DNA of 64,000 bases. Origin: Arachnia propionica (GTDB lineage: Bacteria > Actinomycetota > Actinomycetes > Propionibacteriales > Propionibacteriaceae). The translations under genes and the position numbers were made by a program. The stretch is from positions 2,418,001 through 2,482,000 of the forward strand of contig NZ_CP146373.1 of NCBI RefSeq assembly GCF_037055325.1, written 5' to 3'. Of this stretch, positions 19,272 to 56,457 are shown one piece after another (the first letter of the stretch is position 1; each line of letters opens with the position of its first letter). The notes under the pieces are model-generated. The model had not been told where the DNA came from. It did no database searches and saw only the letters and a list, made by a program, of their open reading frames with translations.

Positions 19272-19479
19272 GAACCGCCTCCTACCGCGCGATAGCAGGG
19301 ATTCTACGACACTTCGTGAAAATGTGGATCGCAACTCCAGATTTTCACACCACAGCCTGGAGGACCAGGACGCGATAGCCGAGCCGGGCGAGCTCATGCG
19401 AGGGGCAAGGGGCGATGACAGTGGCACTGGAGTGCTCGGTGTTGATGTCCGGGAGGCCGCATGGCGGGGCACGCCACTC

Positions 19480-19608: not shown

Positions 19609-19610
19609 TC

Positions 19611-19640
19611 ACCGCCACTGGCGGTAAAATGTGGCGGTAA
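19611..19640 (+). promoter_or_regulatory. ACCGCCA/TGGCGGTAA operator-like repeats before fic
   Basis: ACCGCCA-C-TGGCGGT is a 7-bp dyad (19611-19625), and TGGCGGTAA recurs 13 bases later (19632-19640), so three half-sites lie 52-81 bases before the Fic start. The spacing of about one helix turn suggests cooperative binding. The C-terminal winged helix of the Fic protein itself is a possible ligand, which is inference. Confidence 0.5.
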
Positions 19641-19691
19641 TCGTCTTCACGCCCCGTACACGACGACATCGACACATGAGGGGACGATCGC

Positions 19692-20770: not shown

Positions 20771-23413
20771 TCAGCCCCTGGCGCTCCCAAGCACGCGGCT
20801 GCGGAACTGGTCGGCGGTCAGGTGCCGACGGGATGCGATCGCCAGGTACGACAACCCGACGGCGATCACCCCGAACAGCAGCGCCGCCCCGCCGAGCGCC
20901 ACCAGGCCCGTCCCGCTGGCCAGGAAGGTGCGCACCAGCAGCAGACCGTTGTGCAGCGGCGAGATTCCCGCGAACCCCTGGACCCAGCTCGGCGTGGTGG
21001 ATGTCAGTCCGAGGGCGACGGTGATCACCAGGGCCAGCACCGAGATCCCGCGCCCCACGTTGCCGAGCCAGCCGGTCAGAGCGTGATTGATGACCGCGAA
21101 ACTCGCCCCGACCATCGTCAGCAGGGCAGCTGCCCCGAGGGTGCGTCCCGGCGTCAGTTCGAGAGCCATACCGACCGCGACGCCGAACAGCAGGCCCTGG
21201 ACCGCGCCGAGCGCGGCTGGGGGCCAGAGGGTGCGCAGCCACAGGGTCGCGCTAATGCGGGAGGAGGCAATCAGATCGGAGGGAATGGGCCGGGCGAAAC
21301 TCCACGACAGCAGCGACCCGAGCCACAGGGCCGCCACCGCAAGCAACGCTGCCAGCGGCACCATCGCCGACTCGTAGACCTTCCCGTCCTTCAGCACGGG
21401 CGAGGCGACCACCTGCGACAACGTGTTGCGGTCGGATTCGCTGTAGCTGGGTAGTTTCGACCTGGCCTCGGAGAGCTTGTCGTGGAAGGTCCCGAGCCCC
21501 TGCGACAGTTCCCGCGACCCTGCCCCGAGCCGCAGCAGCCCCGCAGCGAGCTGGGTTGCCCCGTCGGCTGCCTGGCCGACACCGGTCACGTACTTGCCGG
21601 TGCCGTCAGCCAGCTGCCCGGCCCCGGAGGAGAGCCGACCCACCCCCGAGGAGAGCTGACCGGTCGCGTCGGCCAGTTGCGCCGATCCGCTGGCGAGTCG
21701 GTCCGCTCCCTCGGCCAGACGGGCCGTCGCAGCGGGTAGGGCGGAGGTCTGACTTCGCAGTTGCTGCAACCCGCCCAACAGCTGGGTCGCACCGGTGTTG
21801 AGCTGTTCGGCGTTAGTGCGCAACGGCCCGGCCTTGGTGAGGATGGTGTCGGCGCCTTCTCGGAGTTTCGTAACCCCACCGGTCAGTTTCTGCGCCTGCT
21901 CATTGAGCTTCGACGGCAGCTGTTCCAAAGCGGTCAGGGGATCGGTTCCGGCGGGAACGACCTTCGCCATCGCGTCGCGCAGTTTGATGACCGATTCGGT
22001 CATGCCCAACCCCATCCGCGAGAACCCGCGGGCGGTTTCCAGCAGGGTCTTCCCAGTCTTCGGATCGGTGTGCTGCAACACACCGAGGGCAGCCTTCGCT
22101 CCTTGCTGGAATCCCTTGCCCAGGGCGTCGTCCACCCCCTGCTGGTAGGCGTCGCGAAGCAATGTGCAGGTCTCGGTGTTCTCCACCGGACACTTCCAGT
22201 TCGCGACCAGTCGCTGAGAGAACTCCTTCAACTCCGACGGTGGTGGTGTGTCACCGGAGGCGTACCCGGCCAGCGTGGAGTCGAGTTTGTTCAGTTGGGC
22301 GTCGAAGGCCTCGAGCTTGGAACGCACCTCGTCAATGGTGATGCCGTCAGCCCCCGGAAAGTACTGTCTGAGGGCCTGCTGGGCCTCGCGCAGGGTCGGG
22401 ACGAGCTGCCCAAGTGCTGCCTGCGCCTCCTTCATGGCTTCGGGGTTGAGTTGGGAGTTCAGTCCCGATTCGAGCTGGGCCAGGCCGTCGCGCAGCTGCC
22501 CTACCCCGTCGAGGACGGTGACGGTACCCGATGTGTATCCGGGGATACCTTTCAGCAGCGGCGCGGCCCCGTCGGTGAGCTGGTTCACCCCATCCGCGAG
22601 CTTGGGCGCCTGGGCGTTCAGCTGAGCGATGCCTCCCGCGAAGGTCCGGGCACCACCTGCCAGGGTACCGGCCCCACCCGCGAGGGTTGACGCTGCACCG
22701 TTGAGTTTCTGCGTTCCCTCGGCCAGGGTGGTCGCGGCGCTGCTGAGTTCCTGTCCCCGGGTGGACAACTCACCAAGCCCGTCGGCGAGTTTTCCGGAGT
22801 TCTCAGCCGCCGTGTTGGCCCCCTCGGAGAGCTGGGAACCGGCGTCGTTAAGTTTGCCCGCCCCGTCAACGACCTCCTTGAACTGCTCCCCCACCCTGTT
22901 GAAGCCGATGTAGATGTTCTCCAGGTAGGCCTTCGTCAGGGTGGCGTTGATGGTGTCGGTGGCCAGGCCCGCGATGTCGTGCGCGAGGGCTGCATCGGCG
23001 AAGGGTGCGTTCTGGGAGACCACGACGTCAACGGTGGCTTGTTTCGCGATGGCGGCATCGTTGCTGCTGAAGGAGGTCGCGGCCTCGGAGAATCCCTCAG
23101 GGATGGTGACCACTGCGGCATAGCGACCGTCTTTCAATCCGGCATCGGCGTCCTCGGCATCGGCAATGGTCCACGAAATGTTGGGGCCCTCCCGGGCCAC
23201 CATCTCGGAGGCCAGCTGCCGCCCCAAAGGCACGACCTGTCCGTTGACGGTGACCGCCTTGTCGTGGTTGACCACCGCGGCATGGATTCCTTGCTCGTTG
23301 CTGCCGCGCACCAACCCCAGCAGCATGCCGCAGGCAAGCAGTGGCACCAGGGCCAGCACGACGAGCCCCGGCCAACCGAGGCGATGTCCGGAATGAATGC
23401 TTTCAGGTCTCAT
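20771..23413 (-). CDS. YhgE/Pip-type membrane protein (ABC-2-like)
   Basis: An 880-residue protein with one N-terminal helix (about residues 14-35), a Pip/YhgE extracellular domain, and a very long repeat region of LxxGxxxL heptads (LADGLGELSTRG, LNGAASTLAGGAGTLAGG, LAEGADRLASGSAQLADATGQLSSG) that should form coiled rods outside the membrane. About five to six helices at the C-terminus (from about residue 690) resemble ABC-2 permeases. The family includes the phage-infection protein Pip and the ESX/type VII-associated EsaA-like proteins. Its ATG overlaps the MMPL stop (ATGA), so both are made together. As the last gene of the NRPS operon it probably works with the MMPL protein in export or envelope protection. 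Confidence 0.85.
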   Translation of the reverse strand: MRPESIHSGHRLGWPGLVVLALVPLLACGMLLGLVRGSNEQGIHAAVVNHDKAVTVNGQVVPLGRQLASEMVAREGPNISWTIADAEDADAGLKDGRYAAVVTIPEGFSEAATSFSSNDAAIAKQATVDVVVSQNAPFADAALAHDIAGLATDTINATLTKAYLENIYIGFNRVGEQFKEVVDGAGKLNDAGSQLSEGANTAAENSGKLADGLGELSTRGQELSSAATTLAEGTQKLNGAASTLAGGAGTLAGGARTFAGGIAQLNAQAPKLADGVNQLTDGAAPLLKGIPGYTSGTVTVLDGVGQLRDGLAQLESGLNSQLNPEAMKEAQAALGQLVPTLREAQQALRQYFPGADGITIDEVRSKLEAFDAQLNKLDSTLAGYASGDTPPPSELKEFSQRLVANWKCPVENTETCTLLRDAYQQGVDDALGKGFQQGAKAALGVLQHTDPKTGKTLLETARGFSRMGLGMTESVIKLRDAMAKVVPAGTDPLTALEQLPSKLNEQAQKLTGGVTKLREGADTILTKAGPLRTNAEQLNTGATQLLGGLQQLRSQTSALPAATARLAEGADRLASGSAQLADATGQLSSGVGRLSSGAGQLADGTGKYVTGVGQAADGATQLAAGLLRLGAGSRELSQGLGTFHDKLSEARSKLPSYSESDRNTLSQVVASPVLKDGKVYESAMVPLAALLAVAALWLGSLLSWSFARPIPSDLIASSRISATLWLRTLWPPAALGAVQGLLFGVAVGMALELTPGRTLGAAALLTMVGASFAVINHALTGWLGNVGRGISVLALVITVALGLTSTTPSWVQGFAGISPLHNGLLLVRTFLASGTGLVALGGAALLFGVIAVGLSYLAIASRRHLTADQFRSRVLGSARG

Positions 23414-26058
23414 CGCATGCTCCTGACAGATGGGCCGACGACCAGCACGCCGTCGACGGGAAGGGCGTCGAGAATCGATTCGCTACTGGCGCACAGCACC
23501 AACGCGGAGGTGCCGTCGCTGCGGAACCTGCTGATCAGCTCGGTCAGGCGTTCGTCGCCCACATCGATGCTCTCGACCGAATCGACGAAGACAACGCTGC
23601 CCGGAACCGGACGCAGCAGCGCCAAGGCCTCGGGCTCCCTGGCCAGGTCGGTGTAGCGGGTTCGGCGATGCACAGCAGCCGCAGCTCCGGGAAGTAGCTC
23701 CCCCGCCACCCGGGCTCGCCCGGATGTGATGCCGAGCCTACCCGACAGTGCCAGCGCCAGACCGGTACGGGAGGAGACGGGACCCGCGATGCCGATCACG
23801 TTCCCGAGCTCCAGCGCCAGGCTGGTGGGCGGCAGCAGATCCTCGACGGCAACCTCGTCGGCGTAGAGCACATGGTCGCCACCGGGCCACTGGGCCAGTT
23901 TCAGCTTTTCCGTGAGGACCTCACCCTCGACATCGAAGGTGGGCAGGATCTTGTCCAGCCAGCGGGGCAGCCACCAAGCCCGCTCCCCCAGCAGCGCCAT
24001 CACCGCGGGAACCAGCGTCATACGCACGCAGAAAGCGTCGATGGCCACACCGACGGCGAGGGCGAAGGCGATCTGTTTGATGGAGCTGATGCCCTCCGGG
24101 ACGAAGAACGCAAACACCGCAAACATGATCACCGCGGCGGCCACCACCACGGGGCCGGATGCGACCATGCCGTCGCGGATCGCGTCAACGGGTTTTTTGC
24201 CGTGCACGTACTCCTCACGGACCCGGGAAATGAGGAACACCTCGTAGTCCATGGCCAGCCCAAACAGGATTCCCATCAGCAGAATCGGCAGGAAGGAGAT
24301 CACGGGCATCCCGCGCTCCAGGTTGACCATTTCCTTCAGGTAGCCGTCATTGAACACGAGCGTGGTGGCCCCGAAGGCGGCTCCGACCGACAGCAGGAAA
24401 CCGAGAGTGGCCTTGACGGGCACCCACACCGACCGGAACACAGCGGCCAGCAGCACCAGCGACAACCCGACCACGAGCACCCCGAACGGCAGCAGTGCCC
24501 CCATGAGGCGGGAGTTGACGTCGATCTGCATGGCGGTCATGCCCGTGACGGCAGTCTCGACTCCGTAACGTTCCAGCCACTGGTCGTGCCGGTCTCGCAG
24601 GGCCTGGACGAGATCGGCGGTGGCAGGGTCGTCGGGTCCGGTGGTGGGCACCACCTGGAGCATCGCGACCTCCGCGTTCTGGTTGGGGGTGGCCAGCGGC
24701 ACCGCGGCGACACCGTTGATCGCCTCCACGTCCTCCTTGAGGTCGGCCACCAGTTTCAGCGGATCCCTGCTGGAGATGACGTCGGCGGTCAGCACCAGCG
24801 GGCCGTTGCGCCCCACTCCGAAATGTTGCGAGATCAGGTCGTAGGTGACGCGGTCTGGGGCCCCCGCGGTGTGCTGCCCGGAGTTCGGCAAGGCGGTACG
24901 CAATCCCAGACCCGGGATCGTCAACGCCCCGAGGCAAACCACCACGACCAGCAGCACCACGACGGGATGCCCGGTGGTGACGCGACCCCACCAGGCAAAC
25001 GCACCACCTCTGCGGGGCCTGCGACGCCGCCGGGGCCTTCTCGGGCGGGGTCGCAGTCGCTCCCCCAACAGCCCCATCAACGCGGGCAGCATCGTCAGCG
25101 CGATGAACACCGCCAGCACGATGGCCAGAGCCGCGAACGCACCCATCACAGTGAGGAACGGAATCCCCGACACCCCGAGACCGAGCAGGGCGATGAACAC
25201 CGTCAATCCAGCGAACACCACCGCCGAACCGGCGGTCCCGACGGCGCGGGCCGTCGACTCCTCCGCCGTCATACCCTCACCCAGCTGGTTGCGATGGCGG
25301 GAGAGGATGAATAAGGCGTAGTCGATGCCGACCGCGAGTCCCAGCATCACGGCCAGCATCGGGGTGGTCGAGTTAATGCTGGCCAGACGGGTGAGGAGCA
25401 GCATGACGGCCATGGTCACCCCCACCCCCGTGACCGCGGTCAGCAACGGCAGCCCGGCGGCCACCAAGGAACCGAGCACCAGCGTCAGCACCACCAGCGC
25501 TACGCCCAACCCGGCGGCCTCCGTGACGCTCAGACTCGGCAGTTCGATGTTGAAGGCCTGACCCCCCATGTCGAGGGTGGCGCCCTGCGGCAACCGCTGG
25601 GACATGCGTTCGGCGACGGCAGTGAGTGTGGCGAGCTGCTCAGTGGTCGGGGCGCCCTTGGTGTCGATCAGGATCGCGACGATAGCGGCCCGGCCATCAT
25701 CGGAAACCATGCCGGTGATCCGTTCGTTCCACGGGGATGCAGCCGAGTTGACGAAGTCGATCGATTCCAGCTCGGTGATGGTGTCCTCGATGACGTCGCG
25801 GAAGTCGTCGACCCGACCGCCTTCGGGGGCCACGAAGATCGCGGAGGCCTGAGTCATGGCGCCCTGCGGGAAGGTCATCCGCAGCTTGTCGAGGGCAACC
25901 TGGGAGGAGGAACCGGGGATCTTGAACACGTCGGCGAAGCTGCCCCGGAAGGCCAGAGCGGCACCTCCCATGGCCAGGATCACGAGCAGCCACACGGCAA
26001 GAACCAGTTTTGCGTGTTGAAAACACCAGCGACCGAGGGCGTAGAGCTGAGCAGACAT
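23410..26058 (-). CDS. MMPL/RND-family transporter with ABC-ATPase-like C-terminal domain
   Basis: An 882-residue protein with two MMPL halves, each with one helix, a large outside loop and five helices (SINSTTPMLAVMLGLAVGIDYALF and PILLMGILFGLAMDYEVFLISR carry the proton-relay GxxxDY motifs). From about residue 700 a soluble tail of about 180 residues resembles an ABC ATPase in outline: GNVIGIAGPVSSRTGLAL sits where Walker A should be, GRLGITSGRARVAGELLPG follows as in ABC proteins, and GSVVFVDSVES resembles Walker B. The key Walker A Gly-Lys-Ser is absent, so nucleotide hydrolysis is doubtful. It overlaps the YhgE gene and ends the NRPS operon with it. It may move the peptide or a lipid. 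Confidence 0.87.
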   Translation of the reverse strand: MSAQLYALGRWCFQHAKLVLAVWLLVILAMGGAALAFRGSFADVFKIPGSSSQVALDKLRMTFPQGAMTQASAIFVAPEGGRVDDFRDVIEDTITELESIDFVNSAASPWNERITGMVSDDGRAAIVAILIDTKGAPTTEQLATLTAVAERMSQRLPQGATLDMGGQAFNIELPSLSVTEAAGLGVALVVLTLVLGSLVAAGLPLLTAVTGVGVTMAVMLLLTRLASINSTTPMLAVMLGLAVGIDYALFILSRHRNQLGEGMTAEESTARAVGTAGSAVVFAGLTVFIALLGLGVSGIPFLTVMGAFAALAIVLAVFIALTMLPALMGLLGERLRPRPRRPRRRRRPRRGGAFAWWGRVTTGHPVVVLLVVVVCLGALTIPGLGLRTALPNSGQHTAGAPDRVTYDLISQHFGVGRNGPLVLTADVISSRDPLKLVADLKEDVEAINGVAAVPLATPNQNAEVAMLQVVPTTGPDDPATADLVQALRDRHDQWLERYGVETAVTGMTAMQIDVNSRLMGALLPFGVLVVGLSLVLLAAVFRSVWVPVKATLGFLLSVGAAFGATTLVFNDGYLKEMVNLERGMPVISFLPILLMGILFGLAMDYEVFLISRVREEYVHGKKPVDAIRDGMVASGPVVVAAAVIMFAVFAFFVPEGISSIKQIAFALAVGVAIDAFCVRMTLVPAVMALLGERAWWLPRWLDKILPTFDVEGEVLTEKLKLAQWPGGDHVLYADEVAVEDLLPPTSLALELGNVIGIAGPVSSRTGLALALSGRLGITSGRARVAGELLPGAAAAVHRRTRYTDLAREPEALALLRPVPGSVVFVDSVESIDVGDERLTELISRFRSDGTSALVLCASSESILDALPVDGVLVVGPSVRSMR

Positions 26059-26227
26059 CTTCTTCCATCAGTGCAGACTTGCATTCGGGGCACAGCCTAC
26101 TGCGCACCCAAAAGCCTCCACATCCGGGAAGACCCCGGTCCGGACGACACGTCACTGCTCCGTCCGGGACCCCGACGTCACTGCAAAGCGATCCTTGTTC
26201 GGTGAGATCCCCGACCTGCTCCAGGCA

Positions 26228-27241
26228 TCAGGCCGGGGTGGACCCCTCACCGTCGGCGCGCTGCTCCGGCTGGATGGGCTCAGGTCTTCTGCGTGCGGAC
26301 CAGATCGGCGCCACGACACGCTCACGACCACGCCGCGCCAGCATCATGCCCAACACGATGGTCAACGCAGAGATCATGCCCACGGTGACACCGCTGCTCT
26401 CGGCGCCGAACACGCCTCCGGTGAGCCAGTCCGGTCCGGTCACGGTGACTTGCAGGAAAGCCGGCAACTCGTTTCCAGAGACCGGTATCCCCAGCAGCGG
26501 GCCCTGCACGACGTTCCAGGCGGCGTGGTAGCCGATCGTCACCCACAGGGAACGCGTCAGAGCGTACAGCGTCCCGAGCAACATCCCACCGGCCAGGGCC
26601 ACCGATATGCCTCCCCACAAGGTGGCACCGGGATTGGCCATGTGCATGAGCCCGAACACCAGCCCGGATCCGATGATCGCCGCCCACGTACCGAACATCT
26701 GCTCCATCAAGCGGTAGCCGATCCCGCGGTACAGCAGTTCCTCACCGATAGCCGCGCTGACCCCCGCCCCCAGGACGGTCAGGGCAATGGCTCCCAGGTC
26801 CGGCTGCTCCACGACGCTCCACCGGTACCCGCCGGTCAGCGCGATGACACCGCAGCAGACGAGAAAAGCTGCCGCGCCGCCGGCCAGGCCAATCGCCAGT
26901 CCTCGGGCCCAGTGCGTTCTGAGCTCATGGATGTTGCGACGCCGTTCCAGAAAGCGGACGACCAGAAAATACGCGCTACTCAACGTCACTATCTGTATGA
27001 GCGCAGCGGGAACGGCAAGGACCGTTTGCAATTCCTCCGCGGGCACGAAGTTGCCCATGATGATGTTCAAGGCCTGGCTTATCAGGAACATGGCGATCAG
27101 GAAGACGACGAACCGGACGACGATACCGGCAGCTGTCCCTATCTGCCCAGGACCCCAGTACGCGCGCGACGGGATGTCGGGCACAAGACCATTGGATCGT
27201 GACGTGCCGGGTTCTTCTGACAAGTGGACGGAGTTTGTCAC
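26228..27241 (-). CDS. CPBP-family intramembrane metalloprotease
   Basis: A 337-residue protein with about eight helices carrying the Rce1/CPBP motifs: AIGEELLYRG (EExxxR), SGLVFGLMHMA (FxxxH) and YHAAWNVVQG. The charged tail after the last helix is rich in Arg and Pro. GTG 27241 was chosen because AGGAGG lies 7 bases before it; an upstream ATG gives an unrelated N-terminus. CPBP proteins occur widely in bacteriocin and peptide loci, where they give self-immunity or process peptides. Here it lies between the type II thioesterase and the MMPL transporter, so self-protection is a reasonable but unproved guess. Confidence 0.85.
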   Translation of the reverse strand: MTNSVHLSEEPGTSRSNGLVPDIPSRAYWGPGQIGTAAGIVVRFVVFLIAMFLISQALNIIMGNFVPAEELQTVLAVPAALIQIVTLSSAYFLVVRFLERRRNIHELRTHWARGLAIGLAGGAAAFLVCCGVIALTGGYRWSVVEQPDLGAIALTVLGAGVSAAIGEELLYRGIGYRLMEQMFGTWAAIIGSGLVFGLMHMANPGATLWGGISVALAGGMLLGTLYALTRSLWVTIGYHAAWNVVQGPLLGIPVSGNELPAFLQVTVTGPDWLTGGVFGAESSGVTVGMISALTIVLGMMLARRGRERVVAPIWSARRRPEPIQPEQRADGEGSTPA

Positions 27242-27366
27242 CAGTAAACCTCCTCGTGGTAGAAAATGTGGTTCGGGCACACCATCGACAACAGCAGCGC
27301 CAAGGCTGTCCCGTTGACGCGAGACCGCTCCCGAGAATTCTCGTCACGCATGATCACGACTCCGTT

Positions 27367-28143
27367 TCAGCCGCGGGAGAAAACGGCCATGGCGCCAGAT
27401 ACGTGAGTGCTGACGATGTTCAGGAACCTCTCTACGTCCTCACGGTAGTAAAAATGTCCACCCTCGAAGAGAGATATCTGAAACTCGGCATCGGTACATT
27501 CCTTCCAGAAGCTCAGGGCCTTCGGATCGACACGATCATCGCCGTGTCCGCCCAACGCCACGATGGGGATATCCAGACGAGGAAGCCGATGACCGTGGTA
27601 CCGATTCGTCGCGTCATGATCAGCCCGGATTGCGGGCCACACCAGCTCGCGCAGCTCCGGATCGTTCAGCACCTCTCCGGTGTCCGGATCCATGTCACAC
27701 AGCATCGCGGCCAGCTCCTCGTCGGACTGGTGCCGTCCCGGTGTGAGCGCCGCGACCGGAAGCCTCGCGGAGACCAGCAGCAGCGCGACGGGCAGCCCGG
27801 CCTCACGCAGAAGCACCGCCACCTCGTGGGCGATGGATCCGCCCATGCTGTGTCCGAACAGCACCAGCGGGAGGGGCACCTCGGCATGCAGATTCTCCAG
27901 ATCAGCGGCGACCATCCGCGCCATGGCGCGAAGGGACGGCACCGGGGGGTCGAGGAGACGGTCCTCCCGTGCCGGGTAGCGCACGGCGAACAGTTCCACA
28001 TCCTCCGCGCCCCCTGCGAGTCCGTTCAGCCACGTGGCGTATGCGCTCGCGGTCCCCCCTGCATGGGGGAAACACACCATCCGGACACCGGGGCAGGGCC
28101 CGGTGGCACCGTAGTCTCGCAGCCATTCCTGACGTCCCGGCAT
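27367..28143 (-). CDS. Type II thioesterase of the NRPS cluster
   Basis: A 258-residue alpha/beta hydrolase that clears mis-loaded or stalled groups from carrier-protein thiols. The signature pieces are VCFPHAGGTASAYATW (oxyanion side), nucleophile GHSMGG (Ser about residue 99), the Asp in DDRVDP and the His in FEGGHFYY. Its start overlaps the stop of the NRPS-MFS gene by one base (TGATG), so it is translationally coupled. It fits the usual GrsT-like housekeeping enzyme of an NRPS operon. Confidence 0.93.
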   Translation of the reverse strand: MPGRQEWLRDYGATGPCPGVRMVCFPHAGGTASAYATWLNGLAGGAEDVELFAVRYPAREDRLLDPPVPSLRAMARMVAADLENLHAEVPLPLVLFGHSMGGSIAHEVAVLLREAGLPVALLLVSARLPVAALTPGRHQSDEELAAMLCDMDPDTGEVLNDPELRELVWPAIRADHDATNRYHGHRLPRLDIPIVALGGHGDDRVDPKALSFWKECTDAEFQISLFEGGHFYYREDVERFLNIVSTHVSGAMAVFSRG

Positions 28144-31100
28144 CAGGATCCCACCTTCTCCAGCTCCAGGGGCCCGGCTTCCTCGATCGTGCGTACGACA
28201 TCCGTCCCACCGCCGCGACGTGCCCGGGACTGCGCCAAACCGATGAGGTCATCCGGGCTCGCGTCGGGTACCTCGTCGTCGAACCGGACCAGCGCATTCC
28301 ATCGCCTCGTGGAAATCACCAGGGCGAGAACGACCACCCCGCACACCACATAGACCATGGCGATAGCACGCCCGGGGCCGTCGCCCAGCATCGCGTGGAC
28401 CGCGGTTTCGACGCCGGGAACGTTCGCCATCAGCCACTCCATCAGAGCTGTGCCCTGGGGCGCCAGCACGCCGAAACCCAGCGGCGCGCTCGCAGTGGAC
28501 ACCATCGTGTTGATCGCGAACACGCGGCCCTGAAGACGGGCCGGCACCTTCGTCTGGATGATCGTCATCACAACACCGTTGACCAGCAGAATCGATCCTG
28601 CCAACCCGAAAATCCCCACGCACACCAGCGGCAACCAGGGCCGGGAAGCGATGATGAGGGCACAGATTCCCAACACCACCGACATCGCGCGCACTGCATC
28701 CATGCGACGGCGGCGTGGGCCGCCCCAGATGCTCATCACGACTCCAGCGAGGATGCCCGCGCCACCAGAAACCGCAGTGGCAACGGCCACCTCGCTCAGG
28801 GACGCGAAGGTCAACACCAGCGGGGCAACCAGCGAGAGGAGGGGCGCCAGAAACAGGTTGATCAGCGCGAAGTACAGCAGCATGGAGCGGAAGTACCTGT
28901 TGCGCATCGAGAACCGGAAACCACCACGGATCTCCTCCCACAAGGACTCCGGAACCTCCGGCATGGCGGCCGGGAAACGGACCAGGGCGACGGTGGCAAT
29001 CGCGAACACGTACGAAACGACATCGAACGCCAGGATTCCCGGCAGCCCGAAGATAGCAAGCAGACCGACCCCGAACAATGGGGCGATGAAGTTCGCGGCC
29101 CCGATGGCCGATTGCAGCATGCCGTTCGCATGTCCCAGGTAGCGCTTCGGAACGATCTGCGGCAGCGCGGACTGGAAGGCCACCCGTTGGCAGGTGACGG
29201 CACAGGCCACGAGGCCGAAGACCACCATCATGCTCCACAGCTCCATGGTGTCGGTGATCGCCAGTACCAGAAGCATGCCGAGAAGCGTCATGCAGGCCGC
29301 GTCGAAAATCATGATGAGCGTGCGTCGATTGAGTCTGTCCACGACCGCCCCCGCGATGGGGGAGACGATCAGATTCGGCAGGATTCCCAGCACCCCGACG
29401 ATACCGAAGAGCACCAGGTCGTTGGTCTGGGTCAACACCCACAGCGGCAACGCGAACTCGGTCAACGTCGATCCCGTGAACGAGATCATCTGCCCCGATG
29501 CGATGATGGCGAACTTCCCCAGTCCGGGTAGCGTTTCGGCGGATTCCCGACCGCTCTGCAGCACGGACCTGAGCCTGGGCTGGTGGCCGGGTCTGACCGT
29601 TTCCCTCGCGATCCTGCTGTCGTGTAGCCACCACGTCGCGGCGCTCTCCCGGAGGGGGCGGGTGAGGCCGGACTCCGTGTGATCCATGACCCGGCGATGC
29701 ACCGTGGTGAGGATCTCGGCCAGTTCGTCGGGCCGGTAGTTGAGGAAGTAGTGGCCGGCATCCTGAATGCAGACAGACGCGGTTCGATCGGAGTACACGG
29801 ACCATTCATCACTGCGTTCCTCCCAGAACCGGGAGGCCTGATCGGCTTCACCGATGACGCTGATCACCGGGGCCTGGAAGCGTTGCACGTCGCCGCTGAA
29901 GACGTCTGTGAAATAGTCCTCCGCGAACCGGGCGTCCTGGCGCATTGCCTTGACCATGTGGGCTGCGTGTTCCGAGTCCATGGAGTTGATGTCGGTCCCC
30001 ATACCGGCCAGCCAGTTGACGTGGTTCCTGTCGGCAGTGAGCCGCTCCTGGGCGGACCACCTGGCCAGGGTCGCGAGAATCCTGTTGGCCGGTCGGGCCA
30101 CGGGAAAGGCGCCTCCGACGTAGAGGGCCTCGATGTCACGTCCCCTGCGAGCGAGTTCCTCCGCAACGGCAGCGGCCACAGCGGACCCGGGTAGGCAGTG
30201 CCCATAGATGATCAGCCTGCCGTCAATCCGCTCACATATCTCGTCGGCGACGGCAGCGGCCACCTCGGCGGTGGGGAGGACCTCCTCGCCCAGAATCACG
30301 TCATGGCCCGGTGGCTCCACGGCGTGGAGGGAGTACCCTCTCGGAAGCGCTTTAGCCAGATCTCCGAAGACACTGGCATTGGCACCGCCATAAGGAACAG
30401 CAATGATCGACGCGATCCTTTCCCTGGCATCCAGCGGTTCGGTGAGCTCGTACAGCAGGCGGCTCTCAGCGCCACCGCCGCCTCGCCTGTCCTCGATCAG
30501 CCCCGCCAGCTTCTCGACCGTGGGATGGGAGATGATGTCCATCACGGCGACGGTCACCTCGTCCCCCACGATCTTCCTGATGCGGGAAACGGCCTTCGTC
30601 GCCAGCAACGAGTCACCACCCAGGTCGAAGAAGTCCGCGACCACGCTGGGGATCTCGATGTCCAACAGATCGGCGTAGACGGCAGCGAGACTCGCCTCCA
30701 ACGGGGTGCGAGGAGCGACATCAGGTGCCGCGACCACGCCGCGTTCCGGCTCGGTCAGGGCGGCCCGGTCCACCTTGCCGTGTCCCTTGATCGGGAACAC
30801 GTCCACCGTGGCGTAGGCCCGAGGAATCATGTAGTCCGGCAGAGTGCGCGCCAGGTGGTCACGAATGCCGGCATCGGCCACGGGCGTGACGCCCTCGGCC
30901 CACCGGATCCACCCCACCAGCCGCTCGTGCCCCGGCTCGCCCCGCAGGTCGACGACGCACTGGGCGACGCCCTCCATGGTCGCCAGGGTGGACTCGACCT
31001 CGCCCAGTTCAACGCGGTAGCCGCGGATCTTGATCTGGTCGTCGGCGCGTCCGTGGAAGGCCAGCAGTCCGTCAGCACGCCAGCTCACCACGTCACCGGT

Positions 31101-33742: not shown

Positions 33743-33746
<4 letters not shown>
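28143..33746 (-). CDS. NRPS-C: C-A-PCP-TE fused to an MFS exporter
   Basis: An 1867-residue protein, the last module of the line. After an N-terminal linker with a helix ([13 protein letters not shown]) come C (AHHIIVDG near residue 181), A ([11 protein letters not shown] about 655, NNYGPTE about 792), PCP ([12 protein letters not shown], Ser about 1045), TE (GHCLPG about 1183, acid in GEAD, His in AGHYF) and, from about residue 1405 to 1830, a complete MFS transporter of about 12 helices. The A-domain code, read by eye, is DFPKLLNGAK. The TE nucleophile is Cys instead of Ser. The polypeptide therefore releases the peptide and carries its own exporter. The start overlaps the previous stop (ATGA). 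Confidence 0.92.
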
Positions 33747-46255
<12,509 letters not shown>

Positions 46256-46272
46256 GTCTTCTCTCCAGAAGT

Positions 46273-49200
46273 TCAGACGCGGGAACGTGGGGTAAGGCGG
46301 GGACGCGGACGGCGTGGCGCTGCAGCGGTGACGGCTCGGGACGCCAGCGCAGCCGGTGTGGGGGCCTCGAACAGGTCGCGGACGCTAACCGCCCAGCCCG
46401 CGTTTGCAACTGCGGCGACCACCCGAGCCGCTGCCAGGGAGTGCCCCCCGATGGCGAAGAAGTCGGTCGTCCGCCCGACCCCGGGGCATCGCAGGACTGT
46501 TTCGTAGGCCTCGCAGATGGCGCGTTCCACATCGGTGAGCGGGGCGACGAGGTCGTCATCGGGTGCGCTGTCTCCGGGTTCCGGGAGAGCCGTGAGGTCG
46601 AGTTTTCCGTTGACCGTCAGCGGGAGCGCATCCAGCGCGATGACGTGCGAGGGCACAGCGTGTGGGGGAAGTTCGGCCCTGGCGCACTCCAGCACGGCGC
46701 CGGTGGAGATCCCGGCAGGAGTGACGTACACGACGAGAGCCGGCTGGCCCGCCTGGTCCTCGCGGACCATCACGTGCACCTGCTCCACCCCCTCGACGGC
46801 ACGCAGCACGGAGGCGATCTCGCCCGGCTCCACCCTAAAGCCGCGCAGCTTGACCTGCTCGTCGCTGCGACCGCGGTAGATCAGTTCTCCTGCACGGTTC
46901 CAGCGCACCACATCGCCGGTGCGGTAGACCCGTTCCCCACCGCCATCGGGGTCGGCGACGAAGCGGGTCGCGGTCAGGCCTGCGCGATCGCGGTAGCCGA
47001 GAGCGACACCGGGTCCCCCGATGTAAAGCTCACCGTCGACCCCGATCGGGACCGGTCGTAGCAGGGAGTCCAGCACGAGCAGGCGCGCACCGGCCAGTGG
47101 GCCTCCGATGGGGGGTGCGTCCCGACCAGCTGTGAGCGGCCCTGCCACTGTGGCCGCGACCGTCGCCTCCGTCGGCCCGTAGGCGTTGAACATCGAACGT
47201 CCAGGGGCGAACCGTGCGACAAGCTCGGCGCTGCACGCCTCGGCACCGACCAGCAGGGTGTCGAGCCCGTCGAGACCGGCGGGATCGACCGTGGCCAGGG
47301 CGCCCGGAGTGACCAGGGAGACATCGCAGCGTGACAACCACTGCGCCAGTTCGTCGCCGACGAGCACACCGGGCGGTGGGACGACGAGGGTGCCTCCCGC
47401 GGGCCAGGCGAGGCAGAGCTCCAGGATCGATGCGTCGAAGGCGAGGGAAGCGAGTTGCAGCACCCGTGTGCCGGGGGTGAGGCCGTAGCGTTCCTCCTGT
47501 GCCCGGGCGAAGGCGCCCAGTCCGCGTTTGAGAATCTCGACGCCCTTGGGTTCGCCGGTCGAACCGGAGGTGTGGATGATGTAGGCGACGTCACCTCCGC
47601 AAGGTGCGACCTCCGGCAGGCAGCCGTCGCCGTCCGCATCGGCCAGATCGAGCACGGGGGTTCTCGTACCGGCTCGTTCCAGGGCCTCGACTCCCCCGCC
47701 TCCGGCCAGCACCACCCGCATGTCGCAGTCCTCGACCAGCCGGCGCAGACGTGCGGCGGGATGGGTGGCATCCAGCGGCACCGGAACCGCCTGTGCCCTG
47801 GCCACCGCGAGCAGAGCGACGATCGTGTCGGCGGAACGCGGCACACACACCCCGACCCGGTGGCCCGGTTCCACGCCCTGTGTCCGCAGCCACCCGGCCA
47901 TCCGGGAGCTACGGAGGTCGAGTTCGCCATAGGTGAGGTGACCGTCATGCGCCTCGACCGCGAGGGCGTGCGCGCCGGCACCGCGCAACGCGTCGGCGAA
48001 CAGGGTCTCCAGGCCAGCCGGCACGAGGTCCACCTTCGTGGGCATCCCCCAGGACCGTATCGCTGCCGTCTCCCCTGGGGCATGACCCCGCAGCTCGTGC
48101 ATGCGCAGCGACGGATCGGCGACGACACGCTGCGCGAGCAGGACGTATCTGTGCAGGATTGCCGTCACGGTCTCGTCGTCGAACAGGTCGCGCGAGTAGT
48201 CGGCGACGACGCCGATGCCGTCGCGACGCTCCTCCAGGGTGAGGGTGAGATCGAATTTGGATCCCACGACAAGGTTGCGGGCACGCGCCACGTCGAAGAG
48301 CGCACCCGGAACCGCCTCGCGGCGGTGGTCCTGTGTGGTGAACATCACCTGGAACAGGGGATGGCGTCCCCCTGAACGGTCCGGGTTGAGGCGCTCCACC
48401 ACGCTGTCGAAGGCCACGTCGGCATGCGCCAGGCAGTCGGCATCGGAGAGTTTCAGGCGAGCCAGCAGCTCTTCGAAGGTCGGATCCCCCGACAGATCGC
48501 TGCGCAGGACCACCGTGTTCACGAAGAACCCGACGACGTCCTCGAGTGCGCTGCTGTCGCGACCGGCGGTGACGGTACCGACCACGATGTCATCGCCTGC
48601 CCCGTGAAGGTTCAGCAGCGCCGCAAACACACCGTGCAGCACGACAAACGAACTGACACCGGTCCTACCAGCCAGGGCCGTCACTCCACGCTGCGTCGCG
48701 GCGTCGATCTCCGCGCGGACCTGTCCCGCCCCCCGTCCGGATGCCTTGCCGCGCGCACGATCCGGCGGGAAGGTGACCTCCTCCGGCAGCGAACCCAACC
48801 TGCGTTCCCACCACGTGGTCCGTTCGGCCAGGCGAGCGGGATCGGTCGCTGCCGCGGCGCGCGCCCAGTCGTGATACTGCAACGCCGGTTGGGGCAGTCG
48901 CGGGTCCCGCCCCTCCGAGCGGGCCACATAGGCCGATTCCAGGTCACACAGCAGCGGCTCCATGGACCAGCCGTCCGCGGCGATGTGGTGCAGCACCACG
49001 ACCACCGAACAACCGTTCCCGCTTCGGATCACGCTGACCCGCACGGGCAGTTCCTCGGTGAGCCGGAACACGTGACGCGCCGCCGCATCGATGGCGGCTG
49101 CGGCATCCGGGGTACAGATCTCGTCGATGACCGGAACCAGGGCGACCGCCTCCGACGCAGGGATGATCCTCTGCGCCGGTTCGACGCCCGGCAACACCAC

Positions 49201-52200
49201 GCTTCGCAGCGGCTCGTGACGGGCGACGACGTCCCCGAGTGCGGCCTGCAGGGCCGGGAGGTCGATGTCATCGGCGTCGACGACAACAGGAATGTTGTAG
49301 ACGGGTGAAGGTCCGTCGATCTGCTCGACGAGCCACAGCCTGCGTTGAGCCTCTGACATGGGCACGATGCCATCGGCGGGCCGGGGTGCCTGCGTGATGC
49401 CGGTCGCCGGGGCCCCGCCACGGGCACGGGTGAGGAATCCACGCACGGTCGGCGCCAGCAGCACGTCACGCATGGCGACCCGAATGCCAGCCGCGGCCAG
49501 CTGCGAGACCAGTTTCACGACGAGCAGTGAGTGCCCGCCAAGACGGAAGAAGTCGTCATCGGGCCCGACCCGGGAAACCCCGATCACCTCCCCCATGATG
49601 CGGCAGGCCTCGGCCTGTTCACCGTCTTCGGCCGCTTTCCCCGAGCCGCTCAGGGACGGGGCAGGAAGGGCATCCCGGTCAAGCTTGCCGTGGATCGTGG
49701 CGGGAAGCCGGTCGAGGACCACCCAGTGCGACGGGACGGCATGAGCCGGCAGCGAGGCGGCGGCATGGGCGCGTATCCGTTCCACGTCCACCCCGGCTCC
49801 GGCGACGTGAGCGACCAGCGCCTTCCCACCGGCGAGATCATCACGCAGCGACACCGCGGCCCCTGTCACTCCCGGGGCGGCGCCGAGGACCGCCTCGACC
49901 TCACCGGGTTCGATGCGGAAGCCGCGCAGCTTGACCTGGGCGTCGTTGCGTCTAACGAAGTGGAGGCGTCCCTCTCCGTCCAGGCGGACCAGGTCGCCGG
50001 TGCGGTAACGACGGCCACCGTCCGGCCCCGCAACGAAACGGGACGCCGTCAGGCCGGGTTCGCCGACGTACCCGCGGGCGAGACCGGGACCGCTGATGTA
50101 GAGTTCGCCGACCACCCCCGGGGCGACGGGACGCAGGGTGGTGTCCAGCACCTCCAGTCTCGCGCCGTATACGGGTTTCCCGATCGGCACGGAGACCCCG
50201 TGGGGTCCGCGGAGACGGTGCCCGGTTCCGAAGATCGTGGCCTCGGTGGGTCCGTAGAGATTGACCAATCGGGTGCGCCCTGCCACAGCGGTGGCGAATT
50301 GTGCGGGAAAGGCCTCCCCTCCCAGAACCAAGGTCATGCCCTCCGGGATGCTCGAGGGGTCCAGGGTCAGCGCGAAGGATCCGACCATGAAGGCGTGGGT
50401 GACGCCCAGCCGCGCCCACTCGGCCACCAGCGCGCCACCAGAATCGCGGTGCTCGTCGGTGATCAACGCGCAGGCGGCACCGGTCAGCAGCCCCATCGTC
50501 ACCTCGAGCACGCTCGCGTCGAACCCCGGGGACGCCGCCTGCGCCACGACCGTTCCCTCCCCTACACCACACCACCGGCGTTCGGAGGCCACCATGTCGG
50601 CGATCCCCGCGTGGGTGACGTAGACCCCCTTGGGACGGCCGGTGGATCCGGAGGTGTGGATGATGTAGGCACCGGTGTCGGGGGGCAGGGTCGCACCGGG
50701 GCAGTCGGTGACCGGGGCGATGGTGGTCAGCAGATCCGTGATGCCGGGGTCATCCGCGACGACCAGGCGCTGCCCGTCCCAGCGGGCCGCATCTGCTACA
50801 AGCGTGATGACGATGGCCGCCGAGGTGTCCTCGACCACCATCCGCTGCCGTTCGTCCGGGTAGCGCCGGTCGATCGGTTGCCACACGGCCCCCAGCAGGC
50901 TCACCCCGAGGAATGCCGCCACTTGGTCCACCCCGCGCGGAAGCGCGCACGCGACAACGTCCTGGATCGCCACGCCCCTGCTGCGCAGCAGAGCGGCCCA
51001 GCGGCGGGCACGTTCGTCGAGCTCTGCCCGCGTCCACCGCTTCTGACCAGCGATCAGCGCGACGGCCTGCGGATCGTTCTCCACCTGCATGTTCCACAAG
51101 GATGCGATCGTGGCGCCGCCGACGGATGCCGGACCCACCATGTCGGCTGCCTCTCCGGGCAGCAGGACATCGCTTTCAGCCAGCGGCGCATCGGGGCGGA
51201 TGGCAACCTGTCGCAGCACGGATTCCAGCCGATGGACCAGCCGTTCGGCGTTCTCGGCACCCACTTCCGCCGCGTATTCGAGGACCCCTGCGATTCCGTC
51301 CGGGTTACCGGCCCTGAAGCGTTCGGTGAAGGCCCACACCAGCTGGAAACGAGCGGCGGGCGCAGGGGTCGACTGTTGCCGAACCCCGGGCAGGTGCGGA
51401 AGCTCCAGGGTGGCTCCGGATGCACCGTGCGAGGCGTAGTCGGGAACAAATCCGCGCTCCCCTGCACCCATGCTGATCAGGACGTCGATCCAGGGGGTGC
51501 GCCCGGGTTCGCGGTTCGGGTTCAAGGCCTCGACAACGCAATCGAATCCGACACCGGAGTTCCGCATCGCCGTCAGATCGCTCTCCCGCAGCTGTGCGAC
51601 CAATTCCGTGAATGTCCCACCGGGATCGACCTCACTGACGAGAACGATCGTGTTCACGAGTGGCCCCACCATGGCTGCCAGCCCGGCTTCGTCGCGCGCA
51701 CCGACGGCGGCACCCATGCTGAAACGTCGCCCCGCACCGAGACCGGCCAACACCACCGCTATCGCCGCGTGCAGGACGACGAACGGTGTCGCCCGAAGTC
51801 GTTGCGCCAGGGCCAGCACCGCCTGGTGAACACGTGCATCGATGTCGAACGCGACGTACCCCGCTCGTGCGTGGCCGTCCTCGACGACGGGTATCTGCGG
51901 GCACCCGGCGGTAACGTCGCGTAGACGATCCCGCCAGAAGGCGATCTGCTCGGCGGTGGCCACCGGATCGGCGGCCCGGCGCACCTGCTGAGCCGCCACA
52001 TCGGCGAACTGCAGCGGCAGCGGCTGCCACGGGGGCGCGGAGCCCCGGGAACGGGCCGCGTAGGCGGCATCGAGGTCGCGATCCAGCAGCATCATCGACC
52101 ATCCGTCGCAGGCGATGTGGTGCACGACGAGCACGAACACGTGGTCGCTCGGTGTCCGCAGCAGGATCGGTCGGACGACCTCCTCGGCCAGGTCGAATCG

Positions 52201-54243
52201 GTCGTGCACGGCACGGGCCACGACCTCCTCTACCTCATCCGGACCGATCTCGCGAACCCTGATGCCGTCGCGGACGGGATCCGGCGCATCCACGCGCTGC
52301 CAGACCCGTTCGCCATCGCTGCCATAGCGGGTGCGCAGGATCTCATGGCGTTCCACCACGTCCAGCCAGGCTCGTTCCAGGACTGCGACGTCGAGGCCGC
52401 GCCCCAGACGCACGGCGGTGGGCACGACATATCCGGAGGAGCCGTCGGCGCATTCCTCGGCCAGCCACATCCGTTCCTGCGAAGGGGAACACGCCATCTG
52501 CCTGGCCCGCGGCACAGGCACAGGCACAGGTGTCGCGCTGGTCGGTCCGAGGTCATCGAGCAGGGCCGCGACATCACCGATGCGCGGCGACGCGAGAACA
52601 TCCGCAATTACCGGGCAGAGCCCGGTGCGTGACTGCAACTCGGCGACAATCCGGGCCACATCGAGCGAATGACACCCCAGATCGACCAGCGAGTCCTCGA
52701 CCGTGAGATCGCTGATTCCGGTGACCTGTTCCACCGCCTCCGCCACGATGCGTTCCGCGGTCGTGCGCGGCGGCTCCCCCGCTGCCCGCAGCCACACCGG
52801 TTCCGGGAGCGCGGAACGATCCACCTTCCCGCTCACGGTGAGGGGCAGGGCAGGCAGAACGGTCACTGAGGAGGGCACCATGTAGTCAGGAAGTTTCCGC
52901 GCCAGTGCGGCACGCAGCGCACGAGGATCTACTGTGGCACCGGGCAGGGGTGTGACGTGGAGCAGCAGTTTGTCGGACTGCGGACCACCTCCCACGGTGA
53001 CGACCGCCCCTTTGATCCCGGGAAGCCCCAGGACCGTGGCCTCGATCTCACCGGGTTCGACGCGGAAACCGCGTATCTTGATCTGATCATCGGTGCGTCC
53101 GAGGTAATGGATCTCCCCCGTCTCGTCGATGCACACTCGATCACCAGTGCGGTACATCCTTTCACCGGGAACCAGCGGATCGGCGATGAAACGGCAGGCC
53201 GTGAGCCCGTGCTGCCCGGCGTATCCACGCGCAAGACCGGCCCCGGCTACATAGAGTTCGCCGTCCGTGGTCGGGGCCAAGGTCTCGTCCAGGACATAGG
53301 CGCGCATCCCCTCGATCGGATGGCCTATGGGCACGCGTTCGCGGGCCGGGTCGAGGTCATGGGAGTGCAGGCATGTGACAGTGGCCTCCGTCGGGCCGTA
53401 GGTGTTGACCATGCGCCGCCCACCACGCGCCCATTCCCACACCAGGGCTGGTGGGCACGCTTCGGCCCCGACGAAAAGGCATTCGAGGCAGTCGACACCT
53501 GACCCGCTGGCGCCGGAGAGAACCGGCGGCGGAACCAGAGCGTGAGTGATGCCCCAATTCTTCATTTGATCGGCCAGGGCCTGTCCACTCAGTCGTTGTG
53601 GTCCGGGCAACACAAGCGTCGCAGCCGCCCACCACGTACCGATGATGTCCTTCACGCTTGCGTCAAAAGAAAGGGACGCGGTCTGCAGAACTCGACTCCT
53701 GGTCGTCAAACGCCAGGACTCGGCCTGCGAACGCGCGAGTGCTTCCAGCCCGGAATGAGGAACCACCGTCGCTTTGGGACGGCCTGTCGTGCCTGATGTA
53801 TAGATGATGTAAGCAGCCGCGGACGACGGAACCGACGGCCACACAGATGCTCCGGAGGACGCACTCACATCGCCCATGTCCACCAGATTCTGTCCCGAAG
53901 GAAAACTTTCCGCCGTCTCGTCGGTGACGACGATTGCCTGTGGACGGGAATCCTCCAGCAAGTAACACAGTCGCGACCGGGGATGAGCGACGTCGAGAGG
54001 AAGGTAAGCAGCTCCTGTGCGCACGATCGCCACCAATGCGACGATCATGGCAGCAGAACGTGGAACGCAGATACCGACGACGCATTCCGCTCCCCCGATT
54101 CCCCTCTCGACGAGCAGGTTCGCGAGCGCCTCTGCACGGGCATCGAGTTCACGGTAGGTCAGCCGGGCATCGTTGGCATCCACCGCGATGCCTTCGGGGT
54201 TGAGCCGGAGAGCCCGTTCAAAGATGGCGGAATAAGTCAGCAT
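46273..54243 (-). CDS. NRPS-A: loading A-PCP followed by two C-A-PCP modules
   Basis: A 2656-residue first synthetase with layout A-PCP-C-A-PCP-C-A-PCP. It begins with an A domain, as in loading modules. A-domain cores are at about 150, 1199 and 2226, YGPTE at about 281, 1328 and 2353, PCP serines at about 525, 1569 and 2599, and C-domain HHIACDG at 709 and HHIAADG at 1752. By-eye codes are DAKLLVTVTK, DALFLLLIFK and DALVLVAVAK, mostly hydrophobic pockets. PCP1 reads LGCHSLD, with Cys for the second Gly but the pantetheine Ser kept. ATG 54243 (MLTYSAIF) has AAAGGA 6-11 bases before it; a longer in-frame reading to 54288 lacks a site. Confidence 0.93.
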
Positions 54244-54327
54244 CAGGAATCCTTTGCACAAGGTCGGGTGAACCGGGTAGCGGAACACCGCACCGAGCGA
54301 GCATTCGGAAATCGACGAATTTCGAGC

Positions 54328-54546
54328 TCAGAGCGAGGAGCGGGAATCCATTGCCTTAACCAAGGAAGCGGGACGCATATCGGTCCAATGAGAGTCGACC
54401 CATTCCATCGCGACCTTCTGTTTCATGGGACCAGCGACCTTCACCCACCCCGAGGGAATATCCGCAAAAACAGGCCATAGCGAATGCTGATTTTCCGCAT
54501 TGATCAGGACAAAGAAATCAGCATCTTGATCATCAAAGGGATTCAC
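54328..54546 (-). CDS. MbtH-like NRPS accessory protein
   Basis: A 72-residue activator that binds A domains and supports their folding and adenylation activity. It has the family marks NAENQHSLWPVFADIPSGW and HWTDMRPASL. It is the first gene of the NRPS operon, 84 bases before NRPS-A, and a GGAG site lies about 11 bases before the ATG. Which of the eight A domains needs it cannot be told from sequence. Confidence 0.95.
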   Translation of the reverse strand: MNPFDDQDADFFVLINAENQHSLWPVFADIPSGWVKVAGPMKQKVAMEWVDSHWTDMRPASLVKAMDSRSSL

Positions 54547-55863: not shown

Positions 55864-56457
55864 ATGACAGACCTGACGCCACGGCGGGAGGCCACTGTCG
55901 GCCGCTTGGTCAAAGCTGCCATCAGCCAGTTCGCCGCCCGAGGCATAGACGCCACCAGTGTGGAACACCTGTGCGAAGCCGCAGGATTCAGCCGAGGCGC
56001 TTTCTACTCCAACTTCACTTCCAAGGACGACCTGTGCGTCGCGGTGGCCGAGCGCTACCGCGACAGCGTGCAGGCCAGTCTGCCCGAAGCAGTTGCGAGC
56101 CTGCCCTCTGACGAGGACCTCGCCCTGGTGGCCGATGCCGCCCTGGAGAGCTTCCTCAAGATCCTGTCTCCCAGCAGGGAGATGACGATCACCCTATTGG
56201 AGATCCGAATGCGGGCACTGCGGAGCCCCAAACTAGCTGACCACCTGGAACGGATCAACACCGAGACCCGCCCGGCACTGGTCAAGTTCGTGGACGACCT
56301 GGCCACGCGCCTCGGCATCTCCTTCGTGTTGCCAACGGAGTACATTCTTGACCTCTTCGAAGCGCTCTACTACTTCGAGTTCAACCGTTATGGAAAGTAC
56401 AGCATCCGCCCGCTTCTGACCCCCCTGGCGCTGTTCCTCATGCGCTCGGAGGACTGA
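55864..56457 (+). CDS. TetR/AcrR-family regulator
   Basis: A 197-residue repressor type. The N-terminal helix-turn-helix (ATSVEHLCEAAGFSRGAFYSNFTSKDDLCVAVAERY) is a standard TetR DNA-binding domain; the rest is a variable helical ligand and dimer domain ending in a hydrophobic helix (PLALFLMRSED). It lies divergent from the NRPS operon and is the nearest regulator, so it may control the operon and itself in answer to the peptide or its target. The 1.3-kb distance weakens this. The ATG has no clear ribosome site, which suits leaderless translation. Confidence 0.9.
   Translation: MTDLTPRREATVGRLVKAAISQFAARGIDATSVEHLCEAAGFSRGAFYSNFTSKDDLCVAVAERYRDSVQASLPEAVASLPSDEDLALVADAALESFLKILSPSREMTITLLEIRMRALRSPKLADHLERINTETRPALVKFVDDLATRLGISFVLPTEYILDLFEALYYFEFNRYGKYSIRPLLTPLALFLMRSED

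What the first reader, a model, noticed from the sequence alone, without database searches (positions are those of the whole stretch)
20771..54546. Orphan eight-module NRPS operon with its own export and protection genes
mbtH, three synthetases (A-T-C-A-T-C-A-T; four C-A-T; C-A-T-TE-MFS), type II thioesterase, CPBP protease, MMPL-like transporter and YhgE protein are all on one strand with tight junctions (17 bases, ATGA and TGATG overlaps). There are eight A domains and no epimerization, methylation or tailoring domains or accessory biosynthesis genes, so a plain L-residue octapeptide, linear or cyclised by the TE, is expected. I know of no described product with this exact architecture.
Basis: partly seen in the sequence, partly recalled or inferred. 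Interest (0 to 1): 0.75.

Follow-up and report, generated by a model that had tools for sequence, protein, structure and literature searches.

The report
Eight-module peptide synthetase inserted beside exporter

Summary
The anatomy is real: on one strand lie mbtH, three synthetases with 8 A, 7 C and 8 T domains and no sign of epimerisation or methylation domains, a TE fused to an MFS transporter, a type II TE, a CPBP protease, MMPL and YhgE. Three corrections. (1) MMPL-YhgE is not the cluster's own: MMPL-YhgE stands in 22 of 22 genus relatives fetched and TetR beside it in 21; the biosynthetic genes lie between TetR and MMPL only in the window and G002. G004 has the empty site with a 117-nt CPBP remnant, so the cluster was probably lost there. 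G048 has a three-module relative elsewhere. (2) The TE has a Cys nucleophile and the Asp placement of ObiF1, its nearest solved relative, which forms a beta-lactone. (3) The TE-MFS end is not unique: 26 of 33 TE loci fetched have it, 23 of them outside the genus, as do Streptomyces clavuligerus and Embleya plasmids. Three literature searches listed no description. Product unknown. Best reading: an orphan, horizontally mobile peptide line that couples release to export.

The parts
54328..54546 (-). MbtH-like protein, first gene of the cluster
   Evidence: Pfam MbtH 8.2e-21
46273..54288 (-). synthetase 1, A-T-C-A-T-C-A-T (2671 aa from GTG 54288; likely start ATG 54243)
   Evidence: Pfam 3 A, 2 C, 3 T; motif order
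33743..46255 (-). synthetase 2, four C-A-T modules (4170 aa)
   Evidence: Pfam 4 C, 4 A, 4 T; motif order
28143..33746 (-). synthetase 3, C-A-T-TE-MFS (1867 aa)
   Evidence: Pfam C, A, T, TE, MFS_1
29697..30455 (-). cysteine thioesterase domain of synthetase 3 (about residues 1098-1350; Cys in YGHCLPGSA)
   Evidence: ObiF1 1.6e-20 in PDB sequences; residue table
28302..29519 (-). MFS transporter domain fused behind the TE (about residues 1410-1815)
   Evidence: Pfam MFS_1 1.9e-23; 11 predicted membrane segments
27367..28143 (-). type II thioesterase
   Evidence: Pfam Thioesterase 5.5e-36
26228..27280 (-). CPBP-type intramembrane protease (likely start GTG 27241)
   Evidence: Pfam Rce1-like 1.5e-19; EELLYR and FGLMH motifs
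26059..26227 (.). seam: 169 nt between the acquired genes and MMPL; the older TetR/MMPL intergenic region begins here
   Evidence: G004 alignment jumps from window 26142 to 55863; upstream comparison
23410..26058 (-). MMPL transporter, older unit, not specific to the cluster
   Evidence: Pfam MMPL; present in 22 of 22 relatives fetched
20771..23413 (-). YhgE/Pip-type protein, older unit, not specific to the cluster
   Evidence: NCBIfam yhgE domains, below their cut-offs; beside MMPL in 22 of 22 relatives
55864..56457 (+). TetR-type regulator, next to MMPL in relatives without the cluster
   Evidence: Pfam TetR_N; found in 21 of 22 relatives

Best explanation
A horizontally mobile, uncharacterised NRPS cluster (mbtH, three synthetases, type II TE, CPBP) makes a peptide of up to eight residues. 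The first module has no C domain, so the chain should start with a free amine. The chain reaches the last carrier, is taken over by a cysteine TE and released as a linear or macrocyclic peptide, and the MFS transporter fused to the same polypeptide exports it, so that release and export are coupled at the membrane. The cluster sits between an older TetR gene and the MMPL-YhgE pair that TetR probably controlled; MMPL-YhgE may now be read from the cluster. Shown by sequence: domains, order, fusion, TE residues, empty site with CPBP remnant, second site in G048. Inferred: residue identities, release chemistry, coupled export, editing by the type II TE, any protective role of CPBP, capture of MMPL-YhgE.
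For: Domains and order. Cluster whole in G002 at 87% nt. Three of 39 genus genomes have a match spanning TE and MFS. TetR/MMPL-YhgE without the cluster in 20 of 22 relatives, with it in G002, TetR not found in G006. Empty site and 117-nt CPBP remnant in G004. Different site in G048. Cys, Asp, His and Gly of the ObiF1-type triad. TE followed by MFS in relatives, by Pfam in 4 of 4 proteins tested and by membrane segments in 26 of 33 loci.
Against: No product, expression or transport data. The remnant in G004 is of CPBP only, so prior presence of the synthetases there is inferred. The MFS could carry something else or only anchor the enzyme. Where the cluster came from is not resolved by the tree.
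Confidence: 0.6

Rival explanations
1. One reading: one native operon in which MMPL and YhgE are the dedicated exporters of the peptide.
For: Same strand, ATGA overlap of MMPL and YhgE, same order in G002. The repeats seen upstream of MMPL in several relatives are not recognisable in the window and G002 (by eye), which would fit read-through from the cluster.
Against: MMPL-YhgE stands beside TetR without the cluster in 20 of 22 relatives; G048 has the related cluster at another place with MMPL-YhgE uninterrupted; no MMPL or YhgE match in 20 regions around related end modules from other genomes.
Confidence: 0.15
2. The empty site in G004 is not a loss of the cluster: a CPBP gene stood beside MMPL before the synthetases arrived and decayed in G004.
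For: The remnant holds CPBP sequence only; window, G002 and G004 are not resolved in the MMPL tree.
Against: No CPBP match beside MMPL in the 19 fetched regions other than G002, G004 and G048, and in G048 CPBP stands behind the TE-MFS gene at the other site.
Confidence: 0.2
3. The TE closes a four-membered ring as ObiF1 and SulM do, giving a peptide beta-lactone or beta-lactam.
For: ObiF1 and SulM are the best solved relatives (8w2c/8w2d are SulM); same triad layout.
Against: The last A code DFPKVSNGAK does not look like Ser, Thr or Dap but shares Lys at the fourth place with Asp/Asn codes (code lists recalled); no hydroxylase or sulfotransferase was seen among the clustered genes; one extra residue follows the Cys, and SulM's Gln-Cys-Asn motif is absent. 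PMC11298585 notes that ObiF and SulM products are much smaller than those of other TEs (passage).
Confidence: 0.08

Closest known systems
C-A-T-TE-MFS end modules of other actinomycetes (e.g. Streptomyces clavuligerus plasmid pCLA1 NZ_CP027859.1; Embleya sp. NBC_00896 plasmid NZ_CP108777.1)
   Different: No CPBP, MMPL or YhgE match nearby; other upstream modules and last-residue codes
G048 cluster, probably Arachnia rubra
   Same: mbtH, CPBP and a synthetase 3 at 62% identity with Cys TE and MFS
   Different: Three A domains, first C domain without its N-terminal half, no type II TE match, other chromosomal site
ObiF1 (obafluorin synthetase)
   Same: Cys nucleophile, Asp in the RifR-like place, Gly in the usual Asp place
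   Different: ObiF1 has an MbtH-like domain behind the TE, no MFS; single module with a beta-hydroxy substrate (passages); one residue more after the Cys here
SulM (sulfazecin synthetase)
   Same: Cys nucleophile and Asp at position II (passages)
   Different: Gln-Cys-Asn motif absent here; no MFS; no sulfotransferase seen in this cluster

Membership tests
modular nonribosomal peptide synthetase | C, A and T domains in repeated modules with intact core motifs | tested here: met
   8 A, 7 C, 8 T by Pfam; TSGxTGxPK, HHxxxDG and carrier-serine motifs found in every module. AMP-binding_C passed in 7 of 8 A domains
modular nonribosomal peptide synthetase | phosphopantetheinyl transferase available in the genome | tested here: met
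   3 PF01648 matches in the own genome; which one serves this line is unknown
ObiF/SulM-type ring-forming thioesterase | Cys nucleophile, Asp at position II, Gly at position I | tested here: met
   residue alignment; criteria from passages of PMC6668435 and PMC11298585
ObiF/SulM-type ring-forming thioesterase | GXCXG motif (ObiF1) or Gln-Cys-Asn motif (SulM) | tested here: not met
   window GHCLPG, G002 and G048 GHCVPG
ObiF/SulM-type ring-forming thioesterase | last residue with a beta nucleophile | tested here: inconclusive
   A8 code DFPKVSNGAK, Asp/Asn-like by recalled lists
ObiF/SulM-type ring-forming thioesterase | forms a four-membered ring | not testable with these tools
C-A-T-TE-MFS end module of actinomycetes | MFS domain directly behind the TE in one open frame | tested here: met
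   window; 4 of 4 relatives by Pfam
cluster with a known product (MIBiG) | same module order and accessory genes as a described cluster | not testable with these tools
   no MIBiG or antiSMASH; listings showed none

The most novel reading that the evidence does not exclude
The end module is a membrane-held release-and-export machine: a cysteine TE of the strained-ring type hands a reactive (for example beta-lactone-like or otherwise activated) peptide straight to the MFS pump fused to it, so that the peptide is never free in the cell; a genus with human oral members acquired such a module that is otherwise seen in actinomycetes with large genomes.
Probability: 0.1. Interest if true: 0.72.

Novelty: new variant of a known kind. 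Interest (0 to 1): 0.42.

Why it matters
A synthetase whose releasing domain and exporter are one polypeptide would make the coupling of release to export directly testable. The cysteine TE type here sits on an eight-module line, so the suggestion in PMC11298585 (passage) linking this triad to small products can be checked. The window, G002, G004 and G048 form a natural set of full, altered, apparently lost and shortened versions for a metabolite comparison.

Tried and rejected
A known RNA element in the stretch before mbtH: no Rfam match at E up to 1 in 54300-56000. A TetR operator CAGTAGACTGT upstream of both TetR and MMPL in the window: the MMPL copy is kept in G002 but the TetR copy is not, so dropped as probable chance. 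Faster change of TetR after the insertion: G004 and G048 TetR differ as much from each other (66%) as from the window (67%, 63%), rejected. An ABC-type ATPase at the C-terminal end of MMPL: suggested by eye, no PDB sequence match at E up to 1, not claimed. Promoter and terminator scan of 26000-28200: 0 promoter-like sites and 1 terminator-like site against 1.1 expected, nothing above chance. Naming the residues: the codes were placed by my recalled GrsA positions and compared with recalled code lists; only module 8 got a tentative reading, the code of module 3 is ambiguous at one place (V by motif reading, L in the alignment), and the ninth letter of module 6 was read by eye because of an alignment gap. 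Species of the window: not determined. LCL/DCL typing of the C domains was not done. One search ignored the strand of loci and its table was replaced; one search took the first rather than the best TE match in L088 and L089, and recounted all 33 loci by best match. One search likewise misplaced the TE in L114 and L118: its code for L114 (DLTKVGEVGK) is of an earlier A domain, and L118 got none; one search looked at both again.

Full report
What is there. Pfam finds in the three synthetases 3+4+1 A domains, 2+4+1 C domains and 3+4+1 carrier domains, one TE and one MFS domain. The small proteins are MbtH, a type II thioesterase, an Rce1-like (CPBP) protease, an MMPL transporter and a YhgE-type protein (the YhgE models scored below their curated cut-offs). 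Motif positions give A-T-C-A-T-C-A-T, four C-A-T, and C-A-T-TE-MFS; each C domain has one HHxxxDG motif and no second His motif of the dual type was seen. The window lies at 2418001-2482000 of a single 3.31-Mb contig, and that genome has 12 C-domain matches, 7 here and 5 at 2.91-2.92 Mb.

Which organism. G002, 92% identical over the TE-MFS part, is [Pseudopropionibacterium] massiliense, NZ_LR027842.1. G048 has 3,316,972 bp and the Arachnia rubra type strain 3,316,958 bp (PMC8638593, part 1 of 2 of the text read), so G048 is probably that species; this rests on length and genus alone. [quoted passage not shown]

The seam. I fetched the MMPL region of 22 of the 38 other genus genomes; G005, G007, G014 and 13 genomes seen only were not fetched. 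tblastn of window proteins finds MMPL with YhgE beside it in 22 of 22 and TetR in 21 of 22 (not found in G006 at E 1e-8). TetR stands divergently next to MMPL in 20; in G002, as in the window, the mbtH-to-CPBP genes lie between. G004 aligns with the window on both sides (88.7-97% on the left, 73% over TetR, then 88-91%) and jumps from window 26142 to 55863. In the 219 nt between lies a 117-nt, 82%-identical piece of the CPBP 5' end (window 27095-27211, E 1.3e-28) that soon runs into a stop. The simplest reading is that G004's line had the cluster and lost it. The MMPL tree puts window, G002 and G004 together (99/98) without resolving them, with G048 next (100/100). An older CPBP beside MMPL is a rival that I cannot exclude.

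A second site. G048 keeps TetR-MMPL-YhgE uninterrupted and has mbtH, a 1939-aa synthetase frame, a 1866-aa C-A-T-TE-MFS frame and CPBP between homologues of window genes 9427-10950 and 6587-8023. It has three A domains, no type II TE match, and its first C domain lacks the N-terminal half with the active-site motif. Of 39 genus genomes searched, only the window's, G002 and G048 have a match spanning TE and MFS; 11 of 39 have any C domain. MMPL-YhgE is therefore not specific to the cluster; CPBP and the TE-MFS module go with it within the genus.

Possible capture. By eye, repeats of the type GATACA...TGTAT and TGTATCGAA stand upstream of MMPL in relatives such as G004, G048, G017 and G009, and are not recognisable in the window or G002; G003 and G021 have only part of this. 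It would fit loss of the old TetR-controlled start and read-through from the cluster. No statistic was made. A promoter and terminator scan of the region gave nothing above chance.

The thioesterase. phmmer against PDB sequences puts ObiF1 first (1.6e-20), then SulM (8w2c, 2.2e-9, identified), RifR and other type II enzymes. The nucleophile is Cys in the window, G002 and G048. From passages of PMC6668435: ObiF1 uses Cys1146, His1284 and Asp1254, the Asp in the RifR-like place, with a Gly where EntF has Asp. From passages and section 10 of PMC11298585: SulM shares the Cys and the shifted Asp, and both group with type II TEs. Here the aligned residues are C, D, H and G. Against full membership: one extra residue follows the Cys, and SulM's Gln-Cys-Asn motif is absent. 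AB3403 has a Cys nucleophile with the usual Asp (same paper), so Cys alone does not set the chemistry.

How common the fusion is. A profile of the three TEs found matches at E up to 1e-15 in 31 of 394 genomes of the class and 9 of 391 of the order; both samples are drawn from larger groups and include the window's own genome, the second also G002 and G048. Of the 33 loci kept from these searches, 26 have a tail of 11-14 predicted membrane segments behind the TE; 3 of the 26 are the window, G002 and G048, so 23 lie outside the genus. Of the 26, 22 have Cys and 4 Ser as nucleophile; of the other 7 (one, L089, cut off by its contig end) 3 have Cys and 4 Ser. Pfam confirms TE followed by MFS in 4 of 4 relatives tested, one of them from Streptomyces clavuligerus. 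The plasmid collection gives 5 records covering at least 80% of TE-MFS, three of S. clavuligerus and two of Embleya, at about 42% identity; of the two looked at, the tables list nothing there, but open frames show A and C motifs before a GHC TE.

Last-module codes of relatives. In 18 of 20 larger regions the last A code could be aligned: DTEDIGT(I/V)IK in 5, DFTK(V/I/L)GHVGK in 4, Ser-like DVWHVSLVDK in 3, DLPKVAEVGK in 2, DMKQVG(L/Y)VWK in 2, Cys-like DLYNLSLIWK in 1 and DFLKIASVAK in 1 (substrate names recalled). The other two, L114 and L118, were looked at by motif. L102 (from G372), with DFLKIASVAK and the motif IYGHCAPGSAL, has the last A domain nearest to this genus (53-57% identity), an mbtH match and an upstream frame with two A domains and one C domain. 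CPBP, MMPL and YhgE gave no match in any of the 20 regions, MbtH in 5. In the TE-MFS tree this genus is one clade (100/100), not placed with support inside any outside group; L114 and L118 were left out and several long branches were flagged. A donor cannot be named.

The peptide. Codes of modules 1-8 (positions recalled from GrsA): DAKLFGTVTK, DALFVGLIFK, DAL(V/L)LGAVAK, DVIENSTVTK, DVLAIILIDK, DVILITAIVK, DALLMGLIDK, DFPKVSNGAK. Modules 1, 3, 4 and 8 have the same codes in G002; 2, 5, 6 and 7 differ, so the two species would make related but different peptides. Module 8 shares Lys at the fourth place with Asp/Asn codes (recalled). I do not name the others. All-L, eight residues and a free N terminus follow from the domains, not from data.

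Literature. Searches were read as listings: organism and NRPS (27, 49, 65), cysteine TEs, NRPS with MFS (40, 48, 57; 15 of 15, 15 of 36 and 12 of 26 papers listed) and S. clavuligerus (76). Passages were read of PMC9962454, PMC12144821, PMC11278768 and PMC6469967. None of these listings or passages described a TE-MFS synthetase or this cluster. PMC6469967 reports other predicted clusters in P. propionicum F0230a. The library lacks most subscription journals and MIBiG was not available, so absence of a described product is not shown.

Verdict. A real, apparently intact, orphan NRPS cluster of known type. Its export reading should shift from MMPL-YhgE to the fused MFS; its TE is more unusual than reported; its end module is a recurrent actinomycete form. 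Interest is moderate.

Noticed in passing
window 54547-55863: 1.3 kb without an evident gene between mbtH and TetR, in the 2-kb bin of lowest GC of the window (56%); G002 has a stretch of the same size. No Rfam match.
   Followed up: partly
window 23413-23916 (minus strand): MMPL has a C-terminal extension of about 165 residues behind the transporter part, kept in the genus relatives and without a PDB sequence match; by eye it resembles a degenerate ABC ATPase.
   Followed up: partly
window 18057-20660: An AAA/DUF4143 gene and a divergent Fic gene; in G004 Fic matches only residues 1-120 and DUF4143 is in two pieces, in G002 only the DUF4143 end is matched, so this neighbourhood is being rearranged.
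   Followed up: no
G000:C1:2907412-2921149 (outside the window): A second NRPS region in the same genome with 5 C-domain matches.
   Followed up: no
L050:1334-19841 (G008): Another, different NRPS region lies about 11 kb from TetR-MMPL-YhgE in G008, so synthetases occur at three different places around this unit in the genus.
   Followed up: no
L103, L106, L107, L108, L120: The five TE-MFS modules with last A code DTEDIGT(I/V)IK all have Ser instead of Cys as TE nucleophile; nucleophile and last residue may go together.
   Followed up: no
window 26059-26142: Repeats seen upstream of MMPL in several relatives are not recognisable here or in G002 (by eye), as if the old TetR-controlled start had decayed.
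   Followed up: partly
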